Of a stretch of 43,893 nucleotides of DNA, positions 24,433-37,499 are shown one piece after another. Where the stretch lies: positions 1 through 43,893 of the forward strand of contig JAEUUX010000033.1 of assembly GCA_016787295.1 (NCBI GenBank), written 5' to 3'. The notes below the pieces were generated by a model, which saw only the letters and a program-made list of their open reading frames with translations, ran no database searches and was not told the origin of the DNA. The position numbers and the translations under genes are program-made. Source of the DNA: Chitinophagales bacterium. GTDB taxonomy: Bacteria; Bacteroidota; Bacteroidia; Chitinophagales; UBA2359. Each line of letters begins with the position of its first letter. The first letter of the stretch is position 1.

Positions 24433-25848
24433 TTAATGGGTCAATTTGCTTTGGCACACAAAATCGGTAGTAGGCACATTGGTTTTTTCTATGGCAGCAA
24501 ATCCACCTCCAATTTCCGTAAAATTGCGATAGCCACGCGCCTGCAAAATACTTGCTGCAATCATACTGCGATAGCCTCCTGCACAATGTAGATAAAAATG
24601 CTGACTGGGTGTGATGTCTTTTATCCATTCGTTAATGGCTGCCAAAGGTTTGCTATAGGCATCTGGCACATGTTGAGCGCTATATTCACTTTCTTTTCTA
24701 ACATCTATCACCACATCTTTTTCGGCATTGAATTGTTGTGCAAATGTGTCGGCGCTAATGCGATTGACGCTATCTGTTGCTTTACCTGCGGCTATCCAAG
24801 CAGCCATACCGCCTTTGAGGTAGCCTATAGTATTGTCAAATCCAACACGTGCCAAACGCGTGATGGTTTCGGCTTCTTGTCCTTCGTCTGTAACAAGGAT
24901 CAGCGGCTGTTGGGTATCCACAACCATCGCACCAACCCAAGGAGCAAAATCGCCTTTGAGACCAATGTTGATAGACTGTGGAATAAAAGCTTTGCTAAAA
25001 TTGTCGTTATTGCGTGTGTCCAAAATAAGGGCGTGTAATGATTCGGCAGCAACTTCTACTTCATCGGGCGACAATGCTCGCAAACCTTTTTGTAATACCG
25101 TATCAAAATTGGCATAACCTGTTTTGTTCATCGCCACATTCATACCAAAATAACCCGGAGGTGGTAGCAAACCGTCTGTTACAGCCTCAATAAAGGCTTC
25201 TTTGCTCGGTTGATTAAGGGCATAATTCATTTTTTTCTGATTGCCAAGGCTATCAATGGTCTCTTTCATCATATTCTTGCCACAAGCGCTACCTGCTCCG
25301 TGTGCGGGATACACAGTTACATCGTCGGGCAAATGCAATATTTTGTTGTATAGGCTATCATACAACAAGCCCGCTAATTGTTCTTGTGTCATATTGGCAG
25401 CTTTTTGCGCCAAATCAGGACGACCTACATCACCCAAAAACAAAGTATCTCCACTAAACAAAGCTGTGGGTTGTCCGTTTTCGTCCCACAACAAAAAGCA
25501 AGAACTTTCTAAGGTGTGTCCTGGTGTGTGAATAACCTGAATACTGATGTCGCCAACCTGAAATTTTTCACCATCTTTGGCTTGAATAGCCTCAAAAGTA
25601 GGTTGTGCTGTTGGTCCGTATACTATAGAGGCATCGGTTTTTTGACTAAGGTCGAGATGACCACTCACAAAATCGGCATGGAAATGTGTTTCAAAAATGT
25701 ATTTTAATTGCACTTCGTCGCGCTGTAAACGGTCAATATAGGGTTTGGTTTCGCGCAAAGGGTCGATGATTGCCGCTTCGCCATTGGAGGTAATATAATA
25801 AGCACCTTGTGCCAAACAACCTGTATATATTTGCTCTATTTTGTGCAT
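24433..25848 (-). CDS. MBL-fold hydrolase with two rhodanese domains (persulfide dioxygenase-like)
   Basis: A 471-aa cytosolic protein. Residues 1-240 are a metallo-beta-lactamase fold of the ETHE1/Blh type: THFHADFVSGH (His55, His57, Asp59), His111 in HTPGHT, Asp134 in FSGDTLFLGDVGRPDL and His183 in YPAHGAGSACG. Two rhodanese domains follow at about 265-355 and 365-455. The first has TDEGQ at the catalytic loop and no cysteine, so it should be inactive. The second has HCAGGYRS with Cys422. ETHE1-type enzymes oxidise glutathione or similar persulfides to sulfite, and the rhodanese domain handles sulfane sulfur. It is the last gene of the sulfur cluster, 148 bp after the YeeE/YedE genes. Confidence 0.9.
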   Translation of the reverse strand: MHKIEQIYTGCLAQGAYYITSNGEAAIIDPLRETKPYIDRLQRDEVQLKYIFETHFHADFVSGHLDLSQKTDASIVYGPTAQPTFEAIQAKDGEKFQVGDISIQVIHTPGHTLESSCFLLWDENGQPTALFSGDTLFLGDVGRPDLAQKAANMTQEQLAGLLYDSLYNKILHLPDDVTVYPAHGAGSACGKNMMKETIDSLGNQKKMNYALNQPSKEAFIEAVTDGLLPPPGYFGMNVAMNKTGYANFDTVLQKGLRALSPDEVEVAAESLHALILDTRNNDNFSKAFIPQSINIGLKGDFAPWVGAMVVDTQQPLILVTDEGQEAETITRLARVGFDNTIGYLKGGMAAWIAAGKATDSVNRISADTFAQQFNAEKDVVIDVRKESEYSAQHVPDAYSKPLAAINEWIKDITPSQHFYLHCAGGYRSMIAASILQARGYRNFTEIGGGFAAIEKTNVPTTDFVCQSKLTH

Positions 25849-25996
25849 TATAATAGTGTCTTTTAATGTTAATAAAATTAAAAAATAGCGATGTATAAAT
25901 AACTGATTATCAAGTGTTTATGAGTATAATCTACAAACGATAAAGAGTGTAGTATTTGATTTTGTGGTGTTGTTTTTTAGGAGGGTATACTGAAAT

Positions 25997-26515
25997 TTAA
26001 TGCGGCAATTTGTCTCTCAAATAGGCATACGCCCATGTGCCAATTAAGGCACTCATGACGGTGATTAGGATAACAGATACCCCTGCTCCGACTTGTGCAT
26101 ACAAAGGACCAGGACAAGCTCCCGTGATTGCCCAACCGCTGCCAAAGATTAAACCGCCAATGATTTGTCCTCTATTAAAGGTTTTGGGTGCAATATGAAT
26201 TTCTTCGCTGTAGATGGTTAGCAGCCCAAAGCGCTTGATAAGCCAAATGGAAAGACTTGCTACAGCAATGGCACTACCAATAATGCCATACATATGGAAA
26301 GATTGTAGGCGAAACATTTCTTGGATTCTGAACCAGCTAATGATTTCGGCTTTCACAAAAACAAGCCCCAATAAGGATCCCACAATAACATACTTTAGAT
26401 TATGATACCAACGATGCTCCAAATGGCTCTGGTTGGTACAAATGGCATCGGAATTTCTGGTTGCATCTTGTACTTCGAGGGTGTTTTGTGTAGGTGTTTC
26501 TACAAAGTTTGACAT
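25997..26515 (-). CDS. YeeE/YedE-type sulfur transport protein (half 2, DUF6691-like)
   Basis: A 172-aa membrane protein. After a polar N-terminal ~35 residues come about four hydrophobic segments: YVIVGSLLGLVFVKAEIISW, YGIIGSAIAVASLSIWLI, IIGGLIFGSGWAITGACPGP and SVILITVMSALIGTWAYAYL. The motif GACPGPLYAQ carries a conserved Cys134. In YeeE/TsuA, cysteines like this line the path for thiosulfate. In many bacteria the transporter is split into two small proteins, as here and in the preceding gene. It lies 32 bp after that gene. A TATCTTTG-like sequence in the gap (minus strand, 26551-26558) could be an internal promoter but lacks a -33 box. Confidence 0.85.
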   Translation of the reverse strand: MSNFVETPTQNTLEVQDATRNSDAICTNQSHLEHRWYHNLKYVIVGSLLGLVFVKAEIISWFRIQEMFRLQSFHMYGIIGSAIAVASLSIWLIKRFGLLTIYSEEIHIAPKTFNRGQIIGGLIFGSGWAITGACPGPLYAQVGAGVSVILITVMSALIGTWAYAYLRDKLPH

Positions 26516-26547
26516 ACTATTGTTTAGGTTAAATGTATTATATAGTT

Positions 26548-27114
26548 TTACAAAGATAAAATGAATGGAACAATGTAGTTAGCACTGATAAAGCCTCCTA
26601 TCATAAAACAACAGGTTGCAATAACAGAAGGAATTTGTAGGCTCGATATACCCATAATTGCATGACCGCTTGTGCAGCCGCCCGCATAGCGAGAGCCAAA
26701 ACCAATCAAAAAACCGCCCATTATCATCATCGCAAAACCACGCAAAGTGAACAGATTTTGCCAATTGAACAACTGCGCTGGTGTTAGCTGAGTAAAATCG
26801 GTGATGCCATATTGTTGCATTTCGGCTACCAATTCGGGGTGCAATTGTGGGGCTTGAGCGGGGGCAGATAAATAATAGGACGCAATAAAACTACCTAATA
26901 AAACACCCACCACAAAAAACAAATTCCATTGCTCTTTCTTCCAGTCATACTGTAAGAACTTGATACCATTTGGAAAAGTAGCCGCACAAACGTGGCGAAA
27001 AGAAGAACTAATCCCAAATGATTTGTTGCCTAACAATAAAAGTAAAGGCACTAAAATCCCTATCACGGGTCCGGCTATGTACCAATCCCATGGTTGTTGA
27101 AAAAACGTCAACAC
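26548..27114 (-). CDS. YeeE/YedE-type sulfur transport protein (half 1)
   Basis: A 188-aa membrane protein with about five hydrophobic segments. It has the family pattern SSSFRHVCAATFP (Cys43) and GFLIGFGSRYAGGCTSGHAIMGIS (Cys147), the cysteine motifs of the YeeE/YedE thiosulfate/sulfur-compound importers. Together with the next gene it forms the two halves of a full-length YeeE. Which sulfur species is moved, and in which direction, cannot be read. It lies 45 bp after the DUF2892 gene within the minus-strand sulfur cluster. Confidence 0.88.
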   Translation of the reverse strand: MLTFFQQPWDWYIAGPVIGILVPLLLLLGNKSFGISSSFRHVCAATFPNGIKFLQYDWKKEQWNLFFVVGVLLGSFIASYYLSAPAQAPQLHPELVAEMQQYGITDFTQLTPAQLFNWQNLFTLRGFAMMIMGGFLIGFGSRYAGGCTSGHAIMGISSLQIPSVIATCCFMIGGFISANYIVPFILSL

Positions 27115-27159
27115 AATTATATATAAAAGTTTTTAGGGTTAGAAAATCAGCAAGGCAAA

Positions 27160-27369
27160 CTATTGATTTTTGCGCTCACGAGTAGAAATACCAAAAATGG
27201 TATACAAAGGACAAAAACTAATGGCGCTTGTTAAGGCAAAAATAATTGCCAAGATGCCCAGAACAATTGCCAAAGTGCCAGAAATTGCGTTGGTGTAATA
27301 CAAAGCAGCGATCGCAATCGCAACTATCAAACGAACAACTTTGTCGATGGTGCCCATGTTTTTTTTCAT
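27160..27369 (-). CDS. DUF2892 (YgaP-like transmembrane) protein
   Basis: A 69-aa protein with MGTIDKVVRLIVAIAIAALYYT and GTLAIVLGILAIIFALTSAISFCPLYTIFGIST. This is the DUF2892 pattern of two membrane helices ending in the CPLY motif. In some proteins this domain is fused to a rhodanese domain (E. coli YgaP); here the rhodanese is the separate preceding gene 35 bp upstream, so the pair may work as a split YgaP: a membrane anchor next to a sulfurtransferase. Confidence 0.92.
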   Translation of the reverse strand: MKKNMGTIDKVVRLIVAIAIAALYYTNAISGTLAIVLGILAIIFALTSAISFCPLYTIFGISTRERKNQ

Positions 27370-27404
27370 GATACTGTGAATTTAAAATGTAAAAAAATAC
27401 TTGT

Positions 27405-27719
27405 TTATTTAGAATAGCTTCTGACGTTTTCCCAAGTCCCGCCATTAGTTACATTGTTGAATCCATTTTGATTCAAAATGCCTTTGGCTTGTCCACTACG
27501 GTTACCGCTACGGCAAAAAACGATAATTTGGTCTTTGCCTTTAAACTCGTTAAGGCGATGTCCTACTTGATCTAAGGGGATATTGACCGCACCTTTAACA
27601 CTACCACCCGCAAACTCTTGGGGCGTGCGAACATCAACCAAAAATGCGCCACCGTCGATAAGCTGTTTCAAATCGGCAGAATCTTGTGGCATAAGTAAAT
27701 TTTTTAGAAAATCTAACAT
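27405..27719 (-). CDS. Single-domain rhodanese sulfurtransferase
   Basis: A 104-aa single rhodanese domain: FLVDVRTPQEFAGGSVKGAVNIPLDQV and the active loop IIVFCRSGNRSGQA, with catalytic Cys69. It probably carries sulfane sulfur as a cysteine persulfide between thiol donors and acceptors. No signal peptide is evident, so it is cytosolic. It lies 14 bp after the TSUP transporter gene and 35 bp before the DUF2892 membrane protein. Confidence 0.94.
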   Translation of the reverse strand: MLDFLKNLLMPQDSADLKQLIDGGAFLVDVRTPQEFAGGSVKGAVNIPLDQVGHRLNEFKGKDQIIVFCRSGNRSGQAKGILNQNGFNNVTNGGTWENVRSYSK

Positions 27720-27733
27720 GTTTTATAAGTTTT

Positions 27734-28549
27734 TTAATGATGAAAAAACAACTCTTTAACGATGATGTAGATACCCATAACTAGTACAAACCAACCAAAA
27801 GCGGGTTTTAATTTATTGCCGTCGACACGCTTGGCTAAAGTAGCACCAACAAAAATACCAACAATAGCAAAAACAGAAACCGACAATAACAATCCCCAAT
27901 TGACACCTGTTTCGTTACTTTCGCCCAAAAAGCCAATTAACGATTTTAGGGCAATAATAACCAATGACGTACCAACAGCTTGTTTCATGTCCAATTTGGA
28001 GAGCAACACCAATGCGGGAATGATGAGAAATCCGCCGCCTGCACCCACCAAACCTGTCAAAGTACCAACGATTAAACCTTCGGCAATGATCATGGGATAA
28101 TTCAAATTTGCAGTATCAGTAGCCAAAGCACTTGTGGAAGAATTGGTATTCGTCTTGCTGGGTTTTATCATGCTATAAGAAGCCGCAATCATCAACAAAG
28201 CAAACAACACTAACAACAAAATACCTTTGGTAATGACTAAGCCATTGAGACTAAACAAAGTGTCGGGTATGGCAGGCACAAGATAAGCACGAGTCATAAA
28301 AACGGCAACAATAGATGGCAAACCAAAAACCAATGCTATCCGAAGGTTCACCAAGCCATTCCTGAAATAGTTGATAGACCCTATTGCACTTGTCAAACCA
28401 ACAATAAACAACGAATAGGCTGTTGCTGTAACGGCTGACACGCCAAACAGATAAACCAAAACAGGAACAGTCAAAATACTTCCACCACTACCAATTAAGC
28501 CCAAAGAAAGTCCTATGAGCATAGAACATAAATAACCAATGATTTCCAT
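27734..28549 (-). CDS. TauE/SafE (TSUP) family sulfite/sulfur-compound exporter
   Basis: A 271-aa integral membrane protein with about eight helices. The two TSUP repeats are visible as LSLGLIGSGGSILTVPVLVYLFGVS in the N-terminal half and GTLTGLVGAGGGFLIIPALVLL in the second. The family exports anions such as sulfite, sulfoacetate or thiosulfate. In this cluster the likely job is to remove sulfite or thiosulfate made by persulfide oxidation; that is inferred from context. It is the second gene of the cluster, 59 bp after the ArsR regulator. Confidence 0.92.
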   Translation of the reverse strand: MEIIGYLCSMLIGLSLGLIGSGGSILTVPVLVYLFGVSAVTATAYSLFIVGLTSAIGSINYFRNGLVNLRIALVFGLPSIVAVFMTRAYLVPAIPDTLFSLNGLVITKGILLLVLFALLMIAASYSMIKPSKTNTNSSTSALATDTANLNYPMIIAEGLIVGTLTGLVGAGGGFLIIPALVLLSKLDMKQAVGTSLVIIALKSLIGFLGESNETGVNWGLLLSVSVFAIVGIFVGATLAKRVDGNKLKPAFGWFVLVMGIYIIVKELFFHH

Positions 28550-28608
28550 TTAAAGGATATTTTAAACATAGAAAGATAGTTATTGTTATATGTATTTTAG
28601 CAAAAAAA

Positions 28609-28914
28609 CTATAATTCTACGCAACAACTTTCTAAACAATAGATGATATTTTGCATCTTAGGAAAGCGTAGAGCAATGTATTTGTTTCGTCCAATTTTTT
28701 CTGATATTACCACTCCTTTGTCTTCCAAAAGGTTGATGTGTTGCGAGGCAATAGCTTGCTCCAAACCTAATGCTTCTTGGATTTCCAATACGGTCATTCG
28801 AGTATGAATGGTCAATAAATCAACGATGCTTAGGCGAACAGGGTGTGCTATAACTTTGAGCATATTGACCGAAGCCTTAAGTTTTTGGGCTTCTAATCGC
28901 TTATTTAGTACCAT
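28609..28914 (-). CDS. ArsR-family regulator with cysteine-rich C-terminus (BigR-like role)
   Basis: A 101-aa winged-helix repressor. The family core is KVIAHPVRLSIVDLLTIHTRMTVLEIQEALGLEQAIASQHINLLEDKGVVISEKIGRNKYIAL, with the recognition helix at ASQHINLL. The only cysteines are at the very C-terminus: IYCLESCCVEL (Cys93, Cys97, Cys98). Proteobacterial sulfide/persulfide sensors (BigR, SqrR, YgaV) use two cysteines placed differently, one early in the protein, so the thiol switch here may be different; a metal or arsenite site is the alternative. It is the first gene of the sulfur cluster and probably represses it through the palindrome over its own promoter. Confidence 0.9.
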   Translation of the reverse strand: MVLNKRLEAQKLKASVNMLKVIAHPVRLSIVDLLTIHTRMTVLEIQEALGLEQAIASQHINLLEDKGVVISEKIGRNKYIALRFPKMQNIIYCLESCCVEL

Positions 28915-30192: not shown

Positions 30193-30927
30193 ATGCAAAA
30201 AAAGATTGCACACTTGTTTTTTATGGCTACACTTGTTATTAGTAGTCTTTCTCTTTCAGCCTCTCAACATTACGTAGGTGCTTATGTAGGTGATGGTGCT
30301 TATCAAGATGTTATGATTTACAATTGCTGGAACTTCGTAAATGCTTTTTCGGGCAATCCAGCTATTGGCGGACATAACTACGTTAAAGACCAATATTATT
30401 ATGGCGCTCCTTATATGTTTACGACCAGCAACAATTCTTATGCCGACTACGAAGATGTAGCGTTTTATTGTGGTCATGGTTCTTCTTACAATTTGGCAAT
30501 GGGTAGTGGAGCTGCTGTGTCGAGTATGCCTTTGGGCGACAGTTGGGCAGAATTTGTTACTTTCTTCTCTTGTCAAACAGTGGTTTCGGCACCCGAAAGT
30601 AGCACTTGGTGGACACCTTATTGTAGTATGTTCAATGGTTTACATATGTTATTAGGTTTTCGCAGTTTAGCCTCGGCTGCTCGCACCGATATTCCTTTTG
30701 ACTATTCGGCACGTCTCAAAGCAGGTTGGACGGTGAAAGATGCTTGGTTCAGCAGTATCGACGACGAACGTTATTGGATATTTAATCCAAGTATGAGTGA
30801 CGGTTCTCCTTATCCTGGTTGGGCTTCTTGTGTGGTGGGTTCGGGACACTACTACGACCGATTGAGCAGTTATGGTACTGACCCTGCTCCTGGTTGTGGC
30901 GGTATGTGGAACTATTGGCAGTATTAA
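30193..30927 (+). CDS. Secreted clan CD-like cysteine peptidase (DUF6345-like)
   Basis: A 244-aa protein with signal peptide MQKKIAHLFFMATLVISSLSLSAS. The pattern DVAFYCGHGSSYN (His95-Gly96) and, 30 residues later, FVTFFSCQTV (Ser126-Cys127) is the His-Gly/(Ala/Ser)-Cys dyad of clan CD peptidases (caspase, gingipain, legumain). The surrounding sequence (WNFVNAFSG, LHMLLGFRSLASAA, YWQY) recalls DUF6345 proteins. The ATG at 30193 is used because it opens the signal peptide. No T9SS sorting domain or propeptide is present; the next gene encodes a separate propeptide-like protein. Activity is unproven, and a catalytically inert surface protein is possible. Confidence 0.7.
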   Translation: MQKKIAHLFFMATLVISSLSLSASQHYVGAYVGDGAYQDVMIYNCWNFVNAFSGNPAIGGHNYVKDQYYYGAPYMFTTSNNSYADYEDVAFYCGHGSSYNLAMGSGAAVSSMPLGDSWAEFVTFFSCQTVVSAPESSTWWTPYCSMFNGLHMLLGFRSLASAARTDIPFDYSARLKAGWTVKDAWFSSIDDERYWIFNPSMSDGSPYPGWASCVVGSGHYYDRLSSYGTDPAPGCGGMWNYWQY

Positions 30928-31013
30928 TCATCGGCACCTTCAAGACAATACACTCTCCACCAATTCGCTATTTTTTTTCACCAATTTTTAAATTTCTAAA
31001 ATAAACAATAACA

Positions 31014-32024
31014 ATGAAAAAGTTTTCAATTATAGCAGGATTATGCTGCACTGTGGCAATTGCCTATTTCGCTTCTATGAGTTTTCAAGTTACTGCTCCT
31101 CCTCCTGTGGTCAATCACTTTCAAGACGATGACAATCTAAGTATTATTACGATGGATAAAGCTGCTTTGGGTAAAGGAGCGGCTGTGGGTAAATTGGCAA
31201 AGAGCCTCAACAATCCTCGCCTCAACAATGTGGGCGAAGATGTGGAATACCTAAACGATGCCGACCCAGGTAATTTTATCAAAACCAATGCCGCGAAAGG
31301 ACATATTGCGTTTGGGAAAAGCACCAAAAAATATGAAGGTGCGTTTAAACCTCAATTATTGGATACCAAAAGCGCTCAAAATGTTGCCGAGAAATTTTTG
31401 CAAGACAATGATTTGATGCCTAAAAACAAAAGCGAACTGAAATTGTTGCATGCTGGCGGGCTTAGAGCAGCTTCGGCAGACGACGGTGGCAAAGTAATTG
31501 ACAAAATGCAAACTTTTACGTATGGACGCGTTATCAATGGCGTTCCTGTATCGGGCAATGGTTCGCGTATTGTGGTGAATATGGGCGACAAAGGTGAAGT
31601 GTTGGGTGTGTCTAAAAAATGGAAAGAGTTTGAAACAAGTAAATCTCAAAAAGTACAAAAAGCCGAATTGAAAAGCCAACCAGAAGCAGAAGCAGAATTT
31701 GGTAAATTAGTCAATTTCAATTTTGGCAAAGGCGCTTCGCCTAAAGTTAAAACTATCCACAAAATGTACTATGATGGTGGTGGCAACTATATTCAGCCTG
31801 CTTATTTCTTTGAAACAACAGTGACTGTAACGGACGAAAAAGGCAAAAAATCAGAACAACCTTTCTTGGGTGTGGTTTCTATGCTCAAAAATTCTCCCGA
31901 AGCCATCAATCCTGACCCTGCTGAAGTAGCTAAAATTGCTAAATCTGTTCGTACTGCACAAGAAGGTGTTGACCCCAACACACAGAAAAAAGCAAACGAA
32001 CGAGCAGGTAACGAAAACAAATAA
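31014..32024 (+). CDS. Secreted protein with peptidase propeptide-like domain
   Basis: A 336-aa protein with an N-terminal signal/anchor (MKKFSIIAGLCCTVAIAYFASMSFQV). The segment at about residues 120-210 follows the FTP/PepSY-type propeptide layout seen in front of fungalysin, thermolysin-like and DUF6345 peptidases: AQNVAEKFLQDNDLMP, then FTYGRVINGVPVSGNGSRIV, then GDKGEVLGVSKKWKEFE. No protease motif follows; the rest is YYDGGGNYIQPAYFFETTV and a Lys/Asn/Glu-rich tail. It lies 86 bp after the peptidase gene. It may act in trans as inhibitor or folding helper for that peptidase; this is inference from order and domain type. Confidence 0.7.
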   Translation: MKKFSIIAGLCCTVAIAYFASMSFQVTAPPPVVNHFQDDDNLSIITMDKAALGKGAAVGKLAKSLNNPRLNNVGEDVEYLNDADPGNFIKTNAAKGHIAFGKSTKKYEGAFKPQLLDTKSAQNVAEKFLQDNDLMPKNKSELKLLHAGGLRAASADDGGKVIDKMQTFTYGRVINGVPVSGNGSRIVVNMGDKGEVLGVSKKWKEFETSKSQKVQKAELKSQPEAEAEFGKLVNFNFGKGASPKVKTIHKMYYDGGGNYIQPAYFFETTVTVTDEKGKKSEQPFLGVVSMLKNSPEAINPDPAEVAKIAKSVRTAQEGVDPNTQKKANERAGNENK

Positions 32025-32050
32025 AAATTTATTCCTCTTTTTCCCTCTCC

Positions 32051-32081
32051 TTGGCAGGCAGTCGACAGTACTGTCTGCCAA
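32051..32081 (+). other. Hairpin between the propeptide-like and Kazal genes
   Basis: TTGGCAGGCAG pairs with CTGTCTGCCAA through 11 bp (one G-U) around TCGACAGTA. No T run follows, so it may be a processing or attenuation structure between the two genes rather than a full terminator. Confidence 0.5.
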
Positions 32082-32114
32082 TAGGGATATATGGCTATTC
32101 CAAATTTCTTTGCT

Positions 32115-32480
32115 ATGAAAAAAATAATGTGTTTGTTGATCTGTTGTTTTTTGGGGCTAACAATGGCTTGTAATACCGCCAAAAATGGTGGCGAAAATAA
32201 CAGAAATACACCCGCTACTCCCAATGGTTCGCAAAATGGCATTCCGTTGCCTGCACGCGACCCCAATCCACCTGCGGACTATGTGCCGCCGCCACCTCCG
32301 CCGCCGCCACTGACCAATGTGGGCAAAGACTGTGTTGATAAATCAAAGGTGAAAAATCCTAACGAAGACTGTACTTTTTTGTGGGATCCTGTGTGTGGTT
32401 GCAACAATGTAACTTATGAAAACGAATGTTTGGCTCGCAAGGCAGGTGTCCTGAAATGGAAAAAAGGTAAATGTCAATAG
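32115..32480 (+). CDS. Kazal-type serine protease inhibitor, predicted lipoprotein
   Basis: A 121-aa protein with signal MKKIMCLLICCFLGLTMAC, ending in a lipobox-like LTMAC (weak). A polar linker and a proline run (residues ~44-66) follow. The C-terminal ~50 residues are a Kazal domain: Cys73, Cys86, then DPVCGCNNVTYENEC (Cys94, Cys96, Cys105), then WKKGKC (Cys120). This is the P-V-C-G-C-(D/N)-x-x-T-Y-x-N-x-C signature of bacterial Kazal inhibitors, which block serine proteases. It is the last gene of the peptidase/propeptide/Kazal run. The target is unknown; the cysteine peptidase nearby is of a different catalytic type from the classical targets. Confidence 0.88.
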   Translation: MKKIMCLLICCFLGLTMACNTAKNGGENNRNTPATPNGSQNGIPLPARDPNPPADYVPPPPPPPPLTNVGKDCVDKSKVKNPNEDCTFLWDPVCGCNNVTYENECLARKAGVLKWKKGKCQ

Positions 32481-32638
32481 CGTTCTAGGTTTGTTGTAAA
32501 TACCTGATATTTTGATAACGACATCATTTAGTGGTATGGCAAAAATAACAACAGTAAAAACGTTAAGAAAATTTGGGCAAATAAAGCCCAATGGCATATA
32601 ATGATTATAGAAAAAATGAACGATGAATAGCAATAAAA

Positions 32639-32679
32639 CCCGACAGAGTGAATAGTTTCACTCTGTCGGGCTTTTCTGT
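32639..32679 (+). terminator. Terminator of the peptidase/Kazal cassette
   Basis: A perfect 14-bp stem, CCCGACAGAGTGAA (32639-32652) with TTCACTCTGTCGGG (32656-32669), has a 3-nt loop and is followed by CTTTTCTGTT. Confidence 0.88.
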
Positions 32680-33770: not shown

Positions 33771-33951
33771 CGTGCTTGAGCAAGTGAGCGAATGTCAATT
33801 CATTTTTGAATAAATATAGCTTTTAGTAATAAAATTTGTACGAAGTGGACAGTTTTGGTATTTTTTTTTTAACTTTACCGCCCCAAATGTCCATTGGAAA
33901 CAATGGACTATCGTCTAGCATTTTTTTACCAAAATCAAAAAATTATTGTCA

Positions 33952-36234
33952 ATGAAACTTTTTTTTACTTTGTTCGTCTTTGTTTATTTTTCTTGTTTGA
34001 CTTGGGCTGTGTGTCCGACAGGTCAGGCAGAGGTAAGCATTCAGATTACACCCGATTCCTATGCTGCTCAAGAAACAGATTGGTACTTGTATGATTCCGA
34101 CAACACGCTTTTGGGAAGTGGTAGTACGGGAGATTTGATTACTTGTGTACCTGCCAATGAATGCTTGCGTTTTTTGATTACTGATAGCTATGGAGATGGT
34201 TTAACGACTTCGAGTTTTACGGGTAACTATAGTGTATATTATAATGGCACACTTGTGCAAACAGCAAGTAATTTTGGTTATGATGATGAATTTAATTTCG
34301 GGAATTGTCCTGCGGGTATGAGCTGTTATTTGCCACTTGATATTAATAGTGTTGGCAGTTATACAGCACCGTTCAATAATAGTTGGTATGCTTTTACGCC
34401 CGATACGACCGGCAATTATCTGATTCGTACTTGCGATGCTACCTGCAATACTACTATTTGGGTTTATGACCATTGCGACAATTTGGCATGGGGAGCCAAC
34501 CAAGAGGCTACTATGGCATATAGTGTGAATGGCTGTAGCGCGAGCAATGCTTTGGCTAAATTGACAGTAAGTTTGGTCAAAGACCATATTTATTATATTC
34601 GTATTGGCGGCGATGCCACTTGCGACAACTTGACTGTGCCTTGGGATATGGAATATCTGGGTCCTGTATCAGGCTGTATGGACATCAATGCGTGTAATTA
34701 CAATCCTGTGGCGCTTATTAGCGAACCGGGAGCTTGTCTGTATTCGCCCGACGCAAATTGTCCCGAAGGTCCTGACCTGAAAATTGTGCAATCAGATATT
34801 GTTAGTTCTTTGTCCGTTACAACGCAAACTTATAACAGCAGTTGCTATGTCAATGAAGGTTGTTTGAGTGGTTATGGTACGAGAAAATTATTGCGTTTTA
34901 CGACTCACATCAAAAATATTGGCACTCAAGACTATTATGTGGGTGCGCCGTCGGCAAATAGCGACCAGTGGGAATGGGACGAGTGTCATGGACATTGGCA
35001 CTATGAAGGATATGCTGAATATGTACTTTATACGCTTGATGGCATCGAAATGCCTATTGGTTTCAAAAATGGTTTTTGTGTGTTGGATTTGGAATGTAGC
35101 GATGGTGGTGTGGCTAAGTTTACTTGCAATAATCAAGGTATCACGGCAGGTTGTGGTGATATATACAATTCGAGTTTGGCTTGTCAATGGATAGATATTA
35201 CCAATGTGCCGTCGGGGATTTATACCTTGGTGGTACGGGTCAATTGGGATCAATCGCCCGACAAGTTAGGACACTATGAACTGCGGTATGACAACAATTG
35301 GGCGCAAGTGTGCCTTAATATACAACACACCAGCACGAGCGCAACCGTAAGCGTGGTGAATAATTGTTCGCCATATGTGGATTGTGCAGGACAAATATAT
35401 GGATCGGCTCAACCCGATTGTGAAGGAACTTGTAATGGTCTTCGCAAAGCAGGCGACCTTGATGTGAATTATGTATATGAAGCCAACGATGTTAATACCT
35501 ATCTAAGCAATATCGCCGCCAATACTGCCACCTTGACACCCTGTACCGATTTGGTAGCAGACAACGAAATTGATGTATACGATGCCATTATGCTGAATGC
35601 TTGCATACAAGAAAACAATGGTGGCACACACCCCGGCGGAGCAGGCGTAGAATTTTGTGAATTACCTACTATGGTTCTTGATAATGTCAACGACACGGCT
35701 TGGTTTGGTATTGGAGCGATTAATACCAACCAGAAATTTGTTATTGTTGCGTTGCAAAATCCTTTGGCGCACCTATTGGGCTACCAATTTACTTTGCAAG
35801 GACTTAACATTACCAACGTAGAAACCATTGATCCCACAGCAGGTTATTTACCGCAAATTACCTATAACGCAACTACCAAACGAATCATTGTCTCTTCACC
35901 TACCGAAACGATGACTGACCGTTTTTCTAATCCAACACCTATTCTAAAAGTAAGCTATAGTAGTTTGTCGGGTGGTGAGGTGAAAATCGGGCAAGTAGAA
36001 AGTGTGGTGAACAATAATTACGAAAAAATTGTGGGGCAATGTCGTCCGTTTGTGCAGGGCAACAACAATGTTTGCAATACGGGTGCTTATACCTACGGCG
36101 TTCCGTCGGTCACAGGCACAGGTTTTACTTGGTCAATCAATGGCGGTACTATCCTTTCGGGACAAGGCACCAATATGGTCAATGTCAATTGGAATGGTGG
36201 AACAGTAGGCTCGTTGAATGTTGTTCAGCAATAA
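33952..36234 (+). CDS. Secreted lysyl oxidase-domain protein
   Basis: A 760-aa protein starting MKLFFTLFVFVYFSCLTWA (signal peptide). An N-terminal beta region (to ~245) precedes a lysyl oxidase domain at about 270-460. The copper site is WEWDECHGHWHYEGY (His346, His348, His350). Lys372 in GFKNGFC and Tyr405 in DIYNSSLACQWIDIT align with the Lys and Tyr that form the LTQ cofactor of animal lysyl oxidases. Then come a dockerin-like stretch (DLDVNYVYEANDVNTYL, DNEIDVYDAIML, ~500-550), a cohesin-like beta domain (~575-690) and a short PKD/SprB-like piece. The protein ends there without a T9SS sorting domain. It probably oxidises peptidyl lysine or amines outside the cell; substrate unknown. Confidence 0.88.
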   Translation: MKLFFTLFVFVYFSCLTWAVCPTGQAEVSIQITPDSYAAQETDWYLYDSDNTLLGSGSTGDLITCVPANECLRFLITDSYGDGLTTSSFTGNYSVYYNGTLVQTASNFGYDDEFNFGNCPAGMSCYLPLDINSVGSYTAPFNNSWYAFTPDTTGNYLIRTCDATCNTTIWVYDHCDNLAWGANQEATMAYSVNGCSASNALAKLTVSLVKDHIYYIRIGGDATCDNLTVPWDMEYLGPVSGCMDINACNYNPVALISEPGACLYSPDANCPEGPDLKIVQSDIVSSLSVTTQTYNSSCYVNEGCLSGYGTRKLLRFTTHIKNIGTQDYYVGAPSANSDQWEWDECHGHWHYEGYAEYVLYTLDGIEMPIGFKNGFCVLDLECSDGGVAKFTCNNQGITAGCGDIYNSSLACQWIDITNVPSGIYTLVVRVNWDQSPDKLGHYELRYDNNWAQVCLNIQHTSTSATVSVVNNCSPYVDCAGQIYGSAQPDCEGTCNGLRKAGDLDVNYVYEANDVNTYLSNIAANTATLTPCTDLVADNEIDVYDAIMLNACIQENNGGTHPGGAGVEFCELPTMVLDNVNDTAWFGIGAINTNQKFVIVALQNPLAHLLGYQFTLQGLNITNVETIDPTAGYLPQITYNATTKRIIVSSPTETMTDRFSNPTPILKVSYSSLSGGEVKIGQVESVVNNNYEKIVGQCRPFVQGNNNVCNTGAYTYGVPSVTGTGFTWSINGGTILSGQGTNMVNVNWNGGTVGSLNVVQQ

Positions 36235-36369: not shown

Positions 36370-36723
36370 TCACAACAACTGCAAAGTATCAAGCAAAACA
36401 GCATGTATTTTGAGCATACTTTTATGGTCAATTTTACCTTTTATGTCCAATATTCGGTCAAAAGATATTGTTCTTATTTGGTGACAAAGAGCATAACTAT
36501 CAGACCTTAGCCCGCCTTCGTTTTGTAGAATTTTAACCACCGTGTAAAGATTGAACTTAGGTTTGCTGCTTGTAAGAGGAATGACAATAACTAAGCCTAA
36601 TTGTTCAAAGGCTGTTATGACAATACATGGTCTAATGTATGCTTGTTCATGCCCTTTAATTTCGGCAGGAGGGCTACCAAGATCTACATTAATCACATCT
36701 CCTTTGGTATAAGTGTTTGGCAT
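36370..36723 (-). CDS. PemK/MazF-type toxin (endoribonuclease family)
   Basis: A 117-aa protein of the MazF/PemK fold. Visible marks are YTKGDVINVDLGS at the N-terminus, IRPCIVIT with the conserved Arg31, VIVIPLTSS with the catalytic-region Thr51/Ser52, and SYALCHQIRTISFDRI with Arg84 and Ser87. Members usually cut mRNA at short sites and are held by a small antitoxin. The start codon overlaps the stop of the preceding 258-aa gene in a TAATG arrangement, so translation is coupled. No MazE/PemI-like gene of normal size is present; the large upstream protein is the only candidate partner. Confidence 0.85.
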   Translation of the reverse strand: MPNTYTKGDVINVDLGSPPAEIKGHEQAYIRPCIVITAFEQLGLVIVIPLTSSKPKFNLYTVVKILQNEGGLRSDSYALCHQIRTISFDRILDIKGKIDHKSMLKIHAVLLDTLQLL

Positions 36724-37499
36724 TATTGATACGAAAAAAATTTAGCAAAATCATCTAAACCTAAGTTGGCTAAATGTTTTTGTTCTGTAATAGAATCATT
36801 GTCAAAAGAGAAATTAGTTTTTATTAATGTAGTTGTGCGTGTTTTCACCAAACCCAAATTTACTGCCAAAGCAAAGTAATTTTGGGCTGAATCGGCAGCA
36901 AGAAAAGCTAAATCGTTAAGAATCTCCTCCGCAATTAATAGTGATTTTGTATGGATAATACTAGCAGCTATCATCACCCATTCTATAGACAAAGAAGCAT
37001 TAAGCCAATCAACAGTTTCTTGCATCTCCTTGTCATCGGAAATTTCAATGGCTAAGGTAGCCAAAAAATCAAAATAGCTTTGGTCGGGAAGTTCAGCAAA
37101 CAAAAGTCCAAATGCTTCGGGTTGCAAGTTAGTGGTTTGCATAATACTTTCCATTACGCGTTGATGACAGCGAAGTGCGAAAAGCAAATTTTCACTAAGC
37201 ACATTTAAAGTAGGTGTGGTTTTTAGCTTTTCGATAGTTGGAACAATAGCCGCCAATTGCTGCATATAGTCAAAATTTTCTTGACTTGCTAACCATTTTA
37301 ACGCTTTGATACGCAACTCAAAAACTTGAGCAAGCAAATGAGTGCTTACTGCCTCCAATGGTTTAGCCGAAAGCAATACCTCTTGGGTATCGTTCGAAAG
37401 TTGGTCGAATAATTTTTGTAGCGGTTGTTTTAATGTAGGAGATACATTGTATTGCAATTGATAGCAAGGGAAATCTTGATATATAAAAGCGGTTTGCAT
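36723..37499 (-). CDS. Unrecognised helical protein coupled to the PemK toxin; candidate antitoxin
   Basis: A 258-aa, mostly alpha-helical, acidic protein without signal peptide. No DNA-binding motif such as AbrB or ribbon-helix-helix could be seen. The body looks like a helical-repeat or bundle (for instance LLAQVFELRIKALKWLASQ, ENLLFALRCHQRVMESIM, IEWVMIAASIIHTKSLLIAEE). The C-terminal tail, EQKHLANLGLDDFAKFFSYQ, resembles the short acidic/hydrophobic tails by which antitoxins wrap MazF-type toxins. Order, coupling (TAATG) and a shared promoter support a toxin-antitoxin role. It is much larger than known MazE/PemI proteins (~80 aa). The antitoxin function is inference. Confidence 0.7.
   Translation of the reverse strand: MQTAFIYQDFPCYQLQYNVSPTLKQPLQKLFDQLSNDTQEVLLSAKPLEAVSTHLLAQVFELRIKALKWLASQENFDYMQQLAAIVPTIEKLKTTPTLNVLSENLLFALRCHQRVMESIMQTTNLQPEAFGLLFAELPDQSYFDFLATLAIEISDDKEMQETVDWLNASLSIEWVMIAASIIHTKSLLIAEEILNDLAFLAADSAQNYFALAVNLGLVKTRTTTLIKTNFSFDNDSITEQKHLANLGLDDFAKFFSYQ

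What the first reader, a model, noticed from the sequence alone, without database searches (positions are those of the whole stretch)
30193..32480. Secreted cysteine peptidase, separate propeptide-like protein and Kazal inhibitor in one run
Three consecutive exported proteins: a clan CD-like peptidase with a His-Gly/Ser-Cys dyad and no propeptide of its own, a protein with a propeptide-like domain but no catalytic part, and a Kazal inhibitor. A trans-acting propeptide plus a second inhibitor suggests a controlled weapon or processing system with self-protection. The Kazal domain would target serine proteases, so it may guard against another enzyme such as a competitor's or prey's protease.
Basis: partly seen in the sequence, partly recalled or inferred. 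Interest (0 to 1): 0.75.

Follow-up and report, generated by a model that had tools for sequence, protein, structure and literature searches.

The report
Secreted caspase-fold protease with separate propeptide
Three neighbouring genes of a Bacteroidota bacterium encode an uncharacterised secreted protease with a caspase-like fold, a separately made partner that in other bacteria is fused to the same protease as its propeptide, and (in some Bacteroidota only) a Kazal inhibitor lipoprotein, which together look like a secreted enzyme whose safety catch is supplied in trans.

Summary
Gene A (30193-30927) is a secreted DUF6345 protein, a Pfam family of unknown function. AlphaFold2 gives it a clan CD (caspase/legumain/CHAT) fold (Z 14.7 to SAVED-CHAT, 12.8 to caspase-7); its His/Cys dyad is invariant in 43 of 43 aligned relatives. 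Gene B (31014-32024) has a PepSY/FTP-propeptide-like fold and lies directly downstream of A in 38 of 38 testable loci from several phyla. Among 100 genomes of the order A and B occur in the same three only. Natural fusions exist: B-A in five proteins, A-B in at least one. A+B read through as one chain folds with pTM 0.84. B is best read as A's propeptide, encoded in trans. The Kazal lipoprotein (32115-32480) is third in 8 of the 38 loci, all Bacteroidota; its target is unknown. Exploratory: B ends in Asp/Glu in 32 of 33 loci whose A carries RxxRNxW at an S1-forming position, and in Lys/Arg (never seen there) in 9 of 17 others, window included, which fits a charge-matched, substrate-mimicking tail. 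No experiment exists; 'weapon' is not supported, 'controlled secreted protease' is.

The parts
30193..30927 (+). Gene A: secreted DUF6345 protein, predicted clan CD-fold cysteine peptidase; signal peptide about 30193-30261
   Evidence: PF19872 E 3e-17; AF2 pLDDT 84.5, pTM 0.86; Z 14.7 SAVED-CHAT, 12.8 caspase-7, 11.7 legumain
30475..30477 (+). Predicted catalytic His95 of the His-Gly motif
   Evidence: invariant in 43 of 43
30571..30573 (+). Predicted catalytic Cys127 of the Ser-Cys motif
   Evidence: invariant in 43 of 43
30304..30330 (+). Start of helix 1 of A (QDVMIYNCW), where most relatives have ESRFVRNVW; in clan CD this region lines the S1 pocket
   Evidence: S1 residues of caspase-7 and RgpB from PMC4357240
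31014..32024 (+). Gene B: exported PepSY/FTP-propeptide-like protein, predicted trans-acting propeptide of A
   Evidence: adjacent in 38 of 38 loci; fused to A in relatives; same three of 100 genomes as A; fold matches 5coz, YycI, YpeB, fungalysin propeptide
32019..32021 (+). Last residue of B (Lys336); Asp/Glu in most relatives
32115..32480 (+). Gene C: Kazal-domain lipoprotein (ORF opens at 32091; ATG at 32115 is the likelier start)
   Evidence: PF00050 above cut-off; third gene in 8 loci
32355..32432 (+). Kazal domain match; canonical P1 position is Phe at 32376-32378
32639..32670 (+). Terminator-like hairpin closing the A-B-C unit

Best explanation
A split zymogen. A is a secreted clan CD-fold cysteine peptidase (DUF6345) made without a prodomain. 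B, made from the next gene and exported with it, is the missing propeptide: it binds A outside the cytoplasm, probably helps it fold and keeps it inactive until B is removed or digested. In relatives the same two parts form one polypeptide. The Kazal lipoprotein, present in some Bacteroidota only, is a membrane-anchored second guard, against A itself or against another protease. Shown by computation: genes, dyad, fold, linkage, fusions, co-occurrence, co-fold. Inferred: proteolytic activity, inhibition by B, cellular location, and the role of C.
For: A fold: AF2 pLDDT 84.5, top matches SAVED-CHAT, caspases, MALT1, legumain. Dyad 43 of 43, kept in 25 more distant members. B directly downstream of A in 38 of 38 distinct testable loci. 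B found in exactly the three of 100 genomes of the order that hold A, once each. Natural fusions B-A in L058, L059, L117, L118, L119 (B profile E 2e-26 to 6e-10) and A-B in L111 (3e-7). Co-fold of A+B pTM 0.84 despite about 60 disordered residues. B resembles a fungalysin propeptide, YpeB and YycI. Trees of A and B correlate, r 0.81. A terminator-like hairpin lies after C and none between the genes on that strand.
Against: No assay exists. PAE and coordinates could not be inspected, so it is not shown that B covers the active site. The co-fold used the natural read-through of L013, whose linker tethers the parts. Several distant DUF6345 members have no recognisable B within the 1.5 kb flank (L093, L096, L097, L101, L107, L115), so A can probably work otherwise. 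Sequence matches of B to FTP are sub-threshold. The Kazal gene is absent from 30 of 38 loci.
Confidence: 0.72

Rival explanations
1. B is a dedicated folding chaperone, anchor or substrate adaptor rather than an inhibitor; A is active as soon as it is exported and serves nutrition or envelope turnover.
For: All A-B linkage, fusion and co-fold data fit any obligate partner. B's fold class also includes non-inhibitory regulators such as YycI and YpeB. B looks like a lipoprotein in several loci (e.g. L029, L030, L031; and alignment).
Against: The B-A order of the fusions is that of a zymogen; FTP-PepSY propeptides of metalloproteases combine chaperone and inhibitor (established knowledge); B's charged end tracks a motif at the S1 position of A.
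Confidence: 0.2
2. The Kazal protein is an unrelated passenger: a general surface inhibitor of serine proteases that happens to lie downstream.
For: Kazal domains are very common in the window's family (21 of 26 relatives, up to 44 matches per genome); 30 of 38 A-B loci lack it; P1 is Phe in the window, as for a chymotrypsin-type target.
Against: Eight independent loci from several Bacteroidota families keep it in the same place and strand; in Aequorivita (L018) and Fluviicola (L035) it is the only Kazal match in the genome.
Confidence: 0.35
3. A is not a hydrolase but a transpeptidase/ligase-type clan CD enzyme (like GPI transamidase or plant legumain ligases) that processes surface proteins.
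For: Such enzymes share the dyad and appear among the fold matches.
Against: No sorting-type substrate or anchoring gene was recognised nearby; a propeptide-like partner and a neighbouring protease inhibitor are typical of proteases.
Confidence: 0.08
4. A is a delivered weapon against competitors or prey, and B and C are immunity proteins.
For: Exported enzyme with one or two adjacent inhibitor-like proteins.
Against: B is fused to A in relatives, which suits a propeptide and not an immunity protein; no delivery domain on A; no defence-system match; no plasmid copies.
Confidence: 0.08

Closest known systems
SpeB-Spi of Streptococcus pyogenes (C10 cysteine protease with an adjacent propeptide analogue), and Bacteroides fragilis Bfp-Bfi pairs (PMC2873492)
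   Same: Secreted cysteine protease gene followed by a co-oriented gene for a dedicated partner; Spi is described as a propeptide analogue
   Different: C10 is a papain-like clan, SpeB keeps its own propeptide as well; here the enzyme is clan CD-fold, has no propeptide of its own, and the partner is fused to it in relatives
Gingipain RgpB zymogen (C25, clan CD) (PMC4357240)
   Same: Clan CD enzyme held by a large prodomain; RgpB prodomain puts a substrate-mimicking Arg into the S1 pocket against Asp163 on helix 1
   Different: Prodomain is part of the same chain and of another fold; no sequence relation found between A and C25
Thermolysin/fungalysin FTP-PepSY propeptides
   Same: B's fold (4k90_B Z 8.5) and faint FTP sequence matches
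   Different: Those guard metalloproteases and are covalently N-terminal; B partners a cysteine peptidase and is mostly a separate gene
Tannerella KLIKK proteases with potempin inhibitors (from general knowledge; only KLIKK papers seen)
   Same: Bacteroidota proteases encoded beside lipoprotein inhibitors thought to protect the producer
   Different: Other protease clans, no separate propeptide, inhibitors are not Kazal

Membership tests
DUF6345 (PF19872) | Pfam model above gathering score | tested here: met
   63.2 bits against cut-off 26.9
Clan CD cysteine peptidases | Caspase/haemoglobinase fold | tested here: met
   predicted model, Z 14.7 to 11.4 for CHAT, caspases, MALT1, legumain; no solved structure
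Clan CD cysteine peptidases | His-Gly and (Ala/Gly/Ser)-Cys dyad after successive strands | tested here: met
   invariant in 43 of 43 relatives
Clan CD cysteine peptidases | Hydrolysis with strict P1 specificity | not testable with these tools
   no assay
Named clan CD families (C11, C13, C14, C25, C50, C80) | Sequence match to the family | tested here: not met
   35 members match DUF6345 and no clan CD peptidase model in Pfam; NCBIfam none
FTP/PepSY propeptides (for B) | Pfam match above cut-off | tested here: not met
   FTP 13 bits against 21; 9 of 34 members hit it, best E 2e-4
FTP/PepSY propeptides (for B) | Same fold | tested here: inconclusive
   Z 8.5 fungalysin propeptide, 9.1 YpeB, 9.7 YycI, 12.4 5coz, at rmsd 4 to 7
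Propeptide of A (for B) | Covalently N-terminal to the enzyme in some relatives | tested here: met
   L058, L059, L117, L118, L119
Propeptide of A (for B) | Inhibits or folds the enzyme | not testable with these tools
   only co-fold with pTM 0.84
SpeB-Spi type C10 pair | C10 papain-like enzyme | tested here: not met
   A has a clan CD fold
Kazal inhibitors (for C) | Kazal_1/Kazal_2 above cut-off | tested here: met
   28.4 bits against 21 and 27.5 against 22.8
Kazal inhibitors (for C) | Classical six-cysteine pattern | tested here: inconclusive
   six Cys, but one sits in a CGC motif and the classical fifth is missing, as in many bacterial Kazal domains
Kazal inhibitors (for C) | Inhibits a serine protease | not testable with these tools
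   no assay

The most novel reading that the evidence does not exclude
A split zymogen with a charge-coded plug: the free C-terminus of B is a ready-made cleavage product whose last residue sits in the S1 pocket of A, and pocket and last residue switched charge together (Arg pair with terminal Asp/Glu; Arg pair lost with terminal Lys/Arg in the window's lineage and in Chlorobiaceae), with the Kazal lipoprotein as a second guard of the same enzyme.
Probability: 0.33. Interest if true: 0.78.

Novelty: new variant of a known kind. Interest (0 to 1): 0.62.

Why it matters
It proposes a function for a family listed as unknown (DUF6345), found here in several bacterial phyla with a match in the control archaeon Methanosarcina acetivorans, and for its partner, which has no family name of its own. 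An enzyme whose propeptide is a separate gene in most members and fused in others, in either order, shows how propeptides and stand-alone inhibitors turn into each other, and pairs a clan CD cysteine peptidase with a propeptide-like fold known from metalloproteases. The charge rule predicts substrate specificity, which one assay can test.

Tried and rejected
Sequence searches of the PDB with A or B, alone or as profiles, found nothing meaningful. NCBIfam and PADLOC gave no informative match to A or B. No plasmid record encodes A or B, so a mobile-element reading has no support. No held paper names DUF6345. The first alignment of L056 and L057 seemed to break the dyad; this was an artefact of taking the wrong end of A-B proteins and vanished on realignment. 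The idea that the Kazal P1 tracks A's specificity is weak: P1 is Asp in six linked loci against 11 of 100 unlinked domains, but the linked ones are probably orthologues, and in the window and L013 it is Phe, not Lys/Arg. The tail labels printed on the trees are partly wrong (domain envelopes cut the last residues); tails were taken instead. Sigma-70 promoter matches do not exceed shuffles.

Full report
Setting. The window is contig C254 of a 5.4 Mb, 98% complete assembly. Its nearest relative holding this cluster is Bacteroidetes bacterium UBA2322 (L013 = G011), whose A is 71% identical. The open frames at 30193-30927, 31014-32024 and 32091-32480 run in the same direction. A strong terminator-like hairpin follows the third at 32639-32670, and none lies between the genes on the + strand.

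A is a clan CD-fold enzyme. Pfam assigns A to DUF6345, a family of unknown function, and no held paper names it. The alignment of 43 relatives keeps His95-Gly96 and Cys127 without exception. The 25 more distant proteins added later still have the His and the Cys, though in a few the residue after the His is not Gly. The AlphaFold2 model of the window's own A has pLDDT 84.5 and pTM 0.86. Its best structural matches are almost all clan CD: SAVED-CHAT Z 14.7, caspase-7 12.8, MALT1 12.4, legumain 11.7. By sequence it belongs to none of the named clan CD families.

B belongs to A. A scan of named genomes with a three-sequence profile of A gave 34 loci from Bacteroidota, Chlorobiaceae, gammaproteobacteria, Verrucomicrobia, Phycisphaerae and Zipacnadia. 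With the window and further loci, B lies immediately downstream of A in 38 of 38 distinct loci with enough sequence; L041 ends too early to tell. Often the two open frames are only 3 to 20 bases apart. In 100 genomes of the order A is found in three, and B in exactly the same three, once each. Wider sampling found both parts in one polypeptide: B then A in L058, L059, L117, L118 and L119, and A then B in L111, with L057 weaker. This is the classic Rosetta-stone argument, and the B-A order is that of an ordinary zymogen. Some distant DUF6345 proteins show no B in the short flank held (L093, L096, L097, L101, L107, L115).

Fold of B and of the pair. In L013 the two genes are in one frame, so the natural stretch could be read through its stops and folded as one chain with 57 aligned rows. 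The result has pTM 0.84 over 580 residues although most of residues 229-272 and 566-580 is disordered. Two parts of about 225 and 290 residues without a defined mutual position should not reach that value, so I infer that the model places A and B against each other with confidence. PAE and coordinates could not be inspected, and the linker tethers the parts. The B part resembles 5coz (Z 12.4), YycI (9.7), YpeB (9.1) and the fungalysin propeptide chain 4k90_B (8.5). FTP matches by sequence stay below the Pfam cut-off.

The Kazal gene. It is third in eight loci: window, L013, L018 Aequorivita, L022 Flavobacteriaceae UBA3591, L026 (= G006), L027 Ulvibacter, L028 Marixanthomonas and L035 Fluviicola, each with a lipoprotein-type signal by eye. 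Kazal domains are abundant in the window's own family, so there the linkage says little. In L018 and L035 it is the only Kazal match of the genome, so there it says much. Other Bacteroidota (Chitinophaga, Mangrovibacterium), Chlorobiaceae and gammaproteobacteria have A-B without it. It is therefore an accessory, and its target is open.

An exploratory rule. B's last 20 or so residues are poorly conserved, but its final residue is not random. Where A has the motif RxxRNxW at the start of helix 1, B ends in Asp/Glu in 32 of 33 loci and never in Lys/Arg. Where A lacks it, B ends in Asp/Glu in 5 of 17 and in Lys/Arg in 9 of 17. Asp/Glu ends make up 14% among neighbouring open frames. Fisher's P of 6e-7 ignores descent. 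In the tree of A the window and L013 nest inside the motif-bearing clade, so they appear to have lost the motif and the acidic end together, but on a long branch. The position matters because the S1 pocket of caspase-7 uses Arg87 on the loop after the first strand, and that of gingipain RgpB uses Asp163 on helix 1, against which its prodomain places a substrate-mimicking Arg (PMC4357240). Chlorobiaceae L053-L055 have Asp where the first Arg stands and end B in Lys. Exceptions are L044 (Asn end with the motif) and L047, L094, L098, L108 and L109 (acidic end without it). The tail of L013 was not placed by the model, so the contact is not shown. I searched for this pattern after seeing the alignment, so it needs an independent test.

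Comparison. What it works like: SpeB-Spi, where a propeptide analogue is encoded next to a secreted cysteine protease (PMC2873492), and the RgpB zymogen. What it is: a DUF6345 clan CD-fold enzyme with a PepSY/FTP-like partner; it fails the C10 test and matches no named clan CD family by sequence. To my knowledge a separately encoded propeptide has not been described for a clan CD peptidase; only the held open-access library was searched.

Verdict. 'Weapon' is not. Activity, inhibition and the Kazal target need the bench.

Noticed in passing
33946-36234 (+): Large exported protein with a lysyl oxidase domain (PF01186, E 2e-35) and a PKD-like C-terminal domain, directly downstream of the cluster. 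Lysyl oxidase domains are unusual in bacteria.
   Followed up: no
24433-28914 (-): Sulfur-handling gene set: metallo-beta-lactamase/rhodanese protein, sulfur transport (PF04143), rhodanese-like protein, TauE exporter and an ArsR-type regulator.
   Followed up: no
36370-37499 (-): PemK/MazF-like toxin gene overlapping a 258-aa gene without a confident Pfam match, possibly its antitoxin.
   Followed up: no
32635-32674: Very strong inverted repeat (up to 18 pairs) that scores as a terminator on both strands.
   Followed up: no
G003, G001, G013 and other genomes of the window's family: Giant open frames (up to 4293 aa) carrying many Kazal domains; 44 matches in G003 alone. A family-wide expansion of bacterial Kazal domains.
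   Followed up: no
L112, L120, L122, L123 (genome G1394): Tandem pairs of DUF6345 genes in one genome (four copies), with a B-like gene behind them.
   Followed up: no
L111: DUF6345 inside a very long open frame (about 1450 aa) with Ig-like/Big domains before it and a B-like part after it.
   Followed up: partly
L018, L022, L026, L027, L028, L035: All six linked Kazal proteins outside the window's closest lineage have Asp at the canonical P1 position; window and L013 have Phe.
   Followed up: partly
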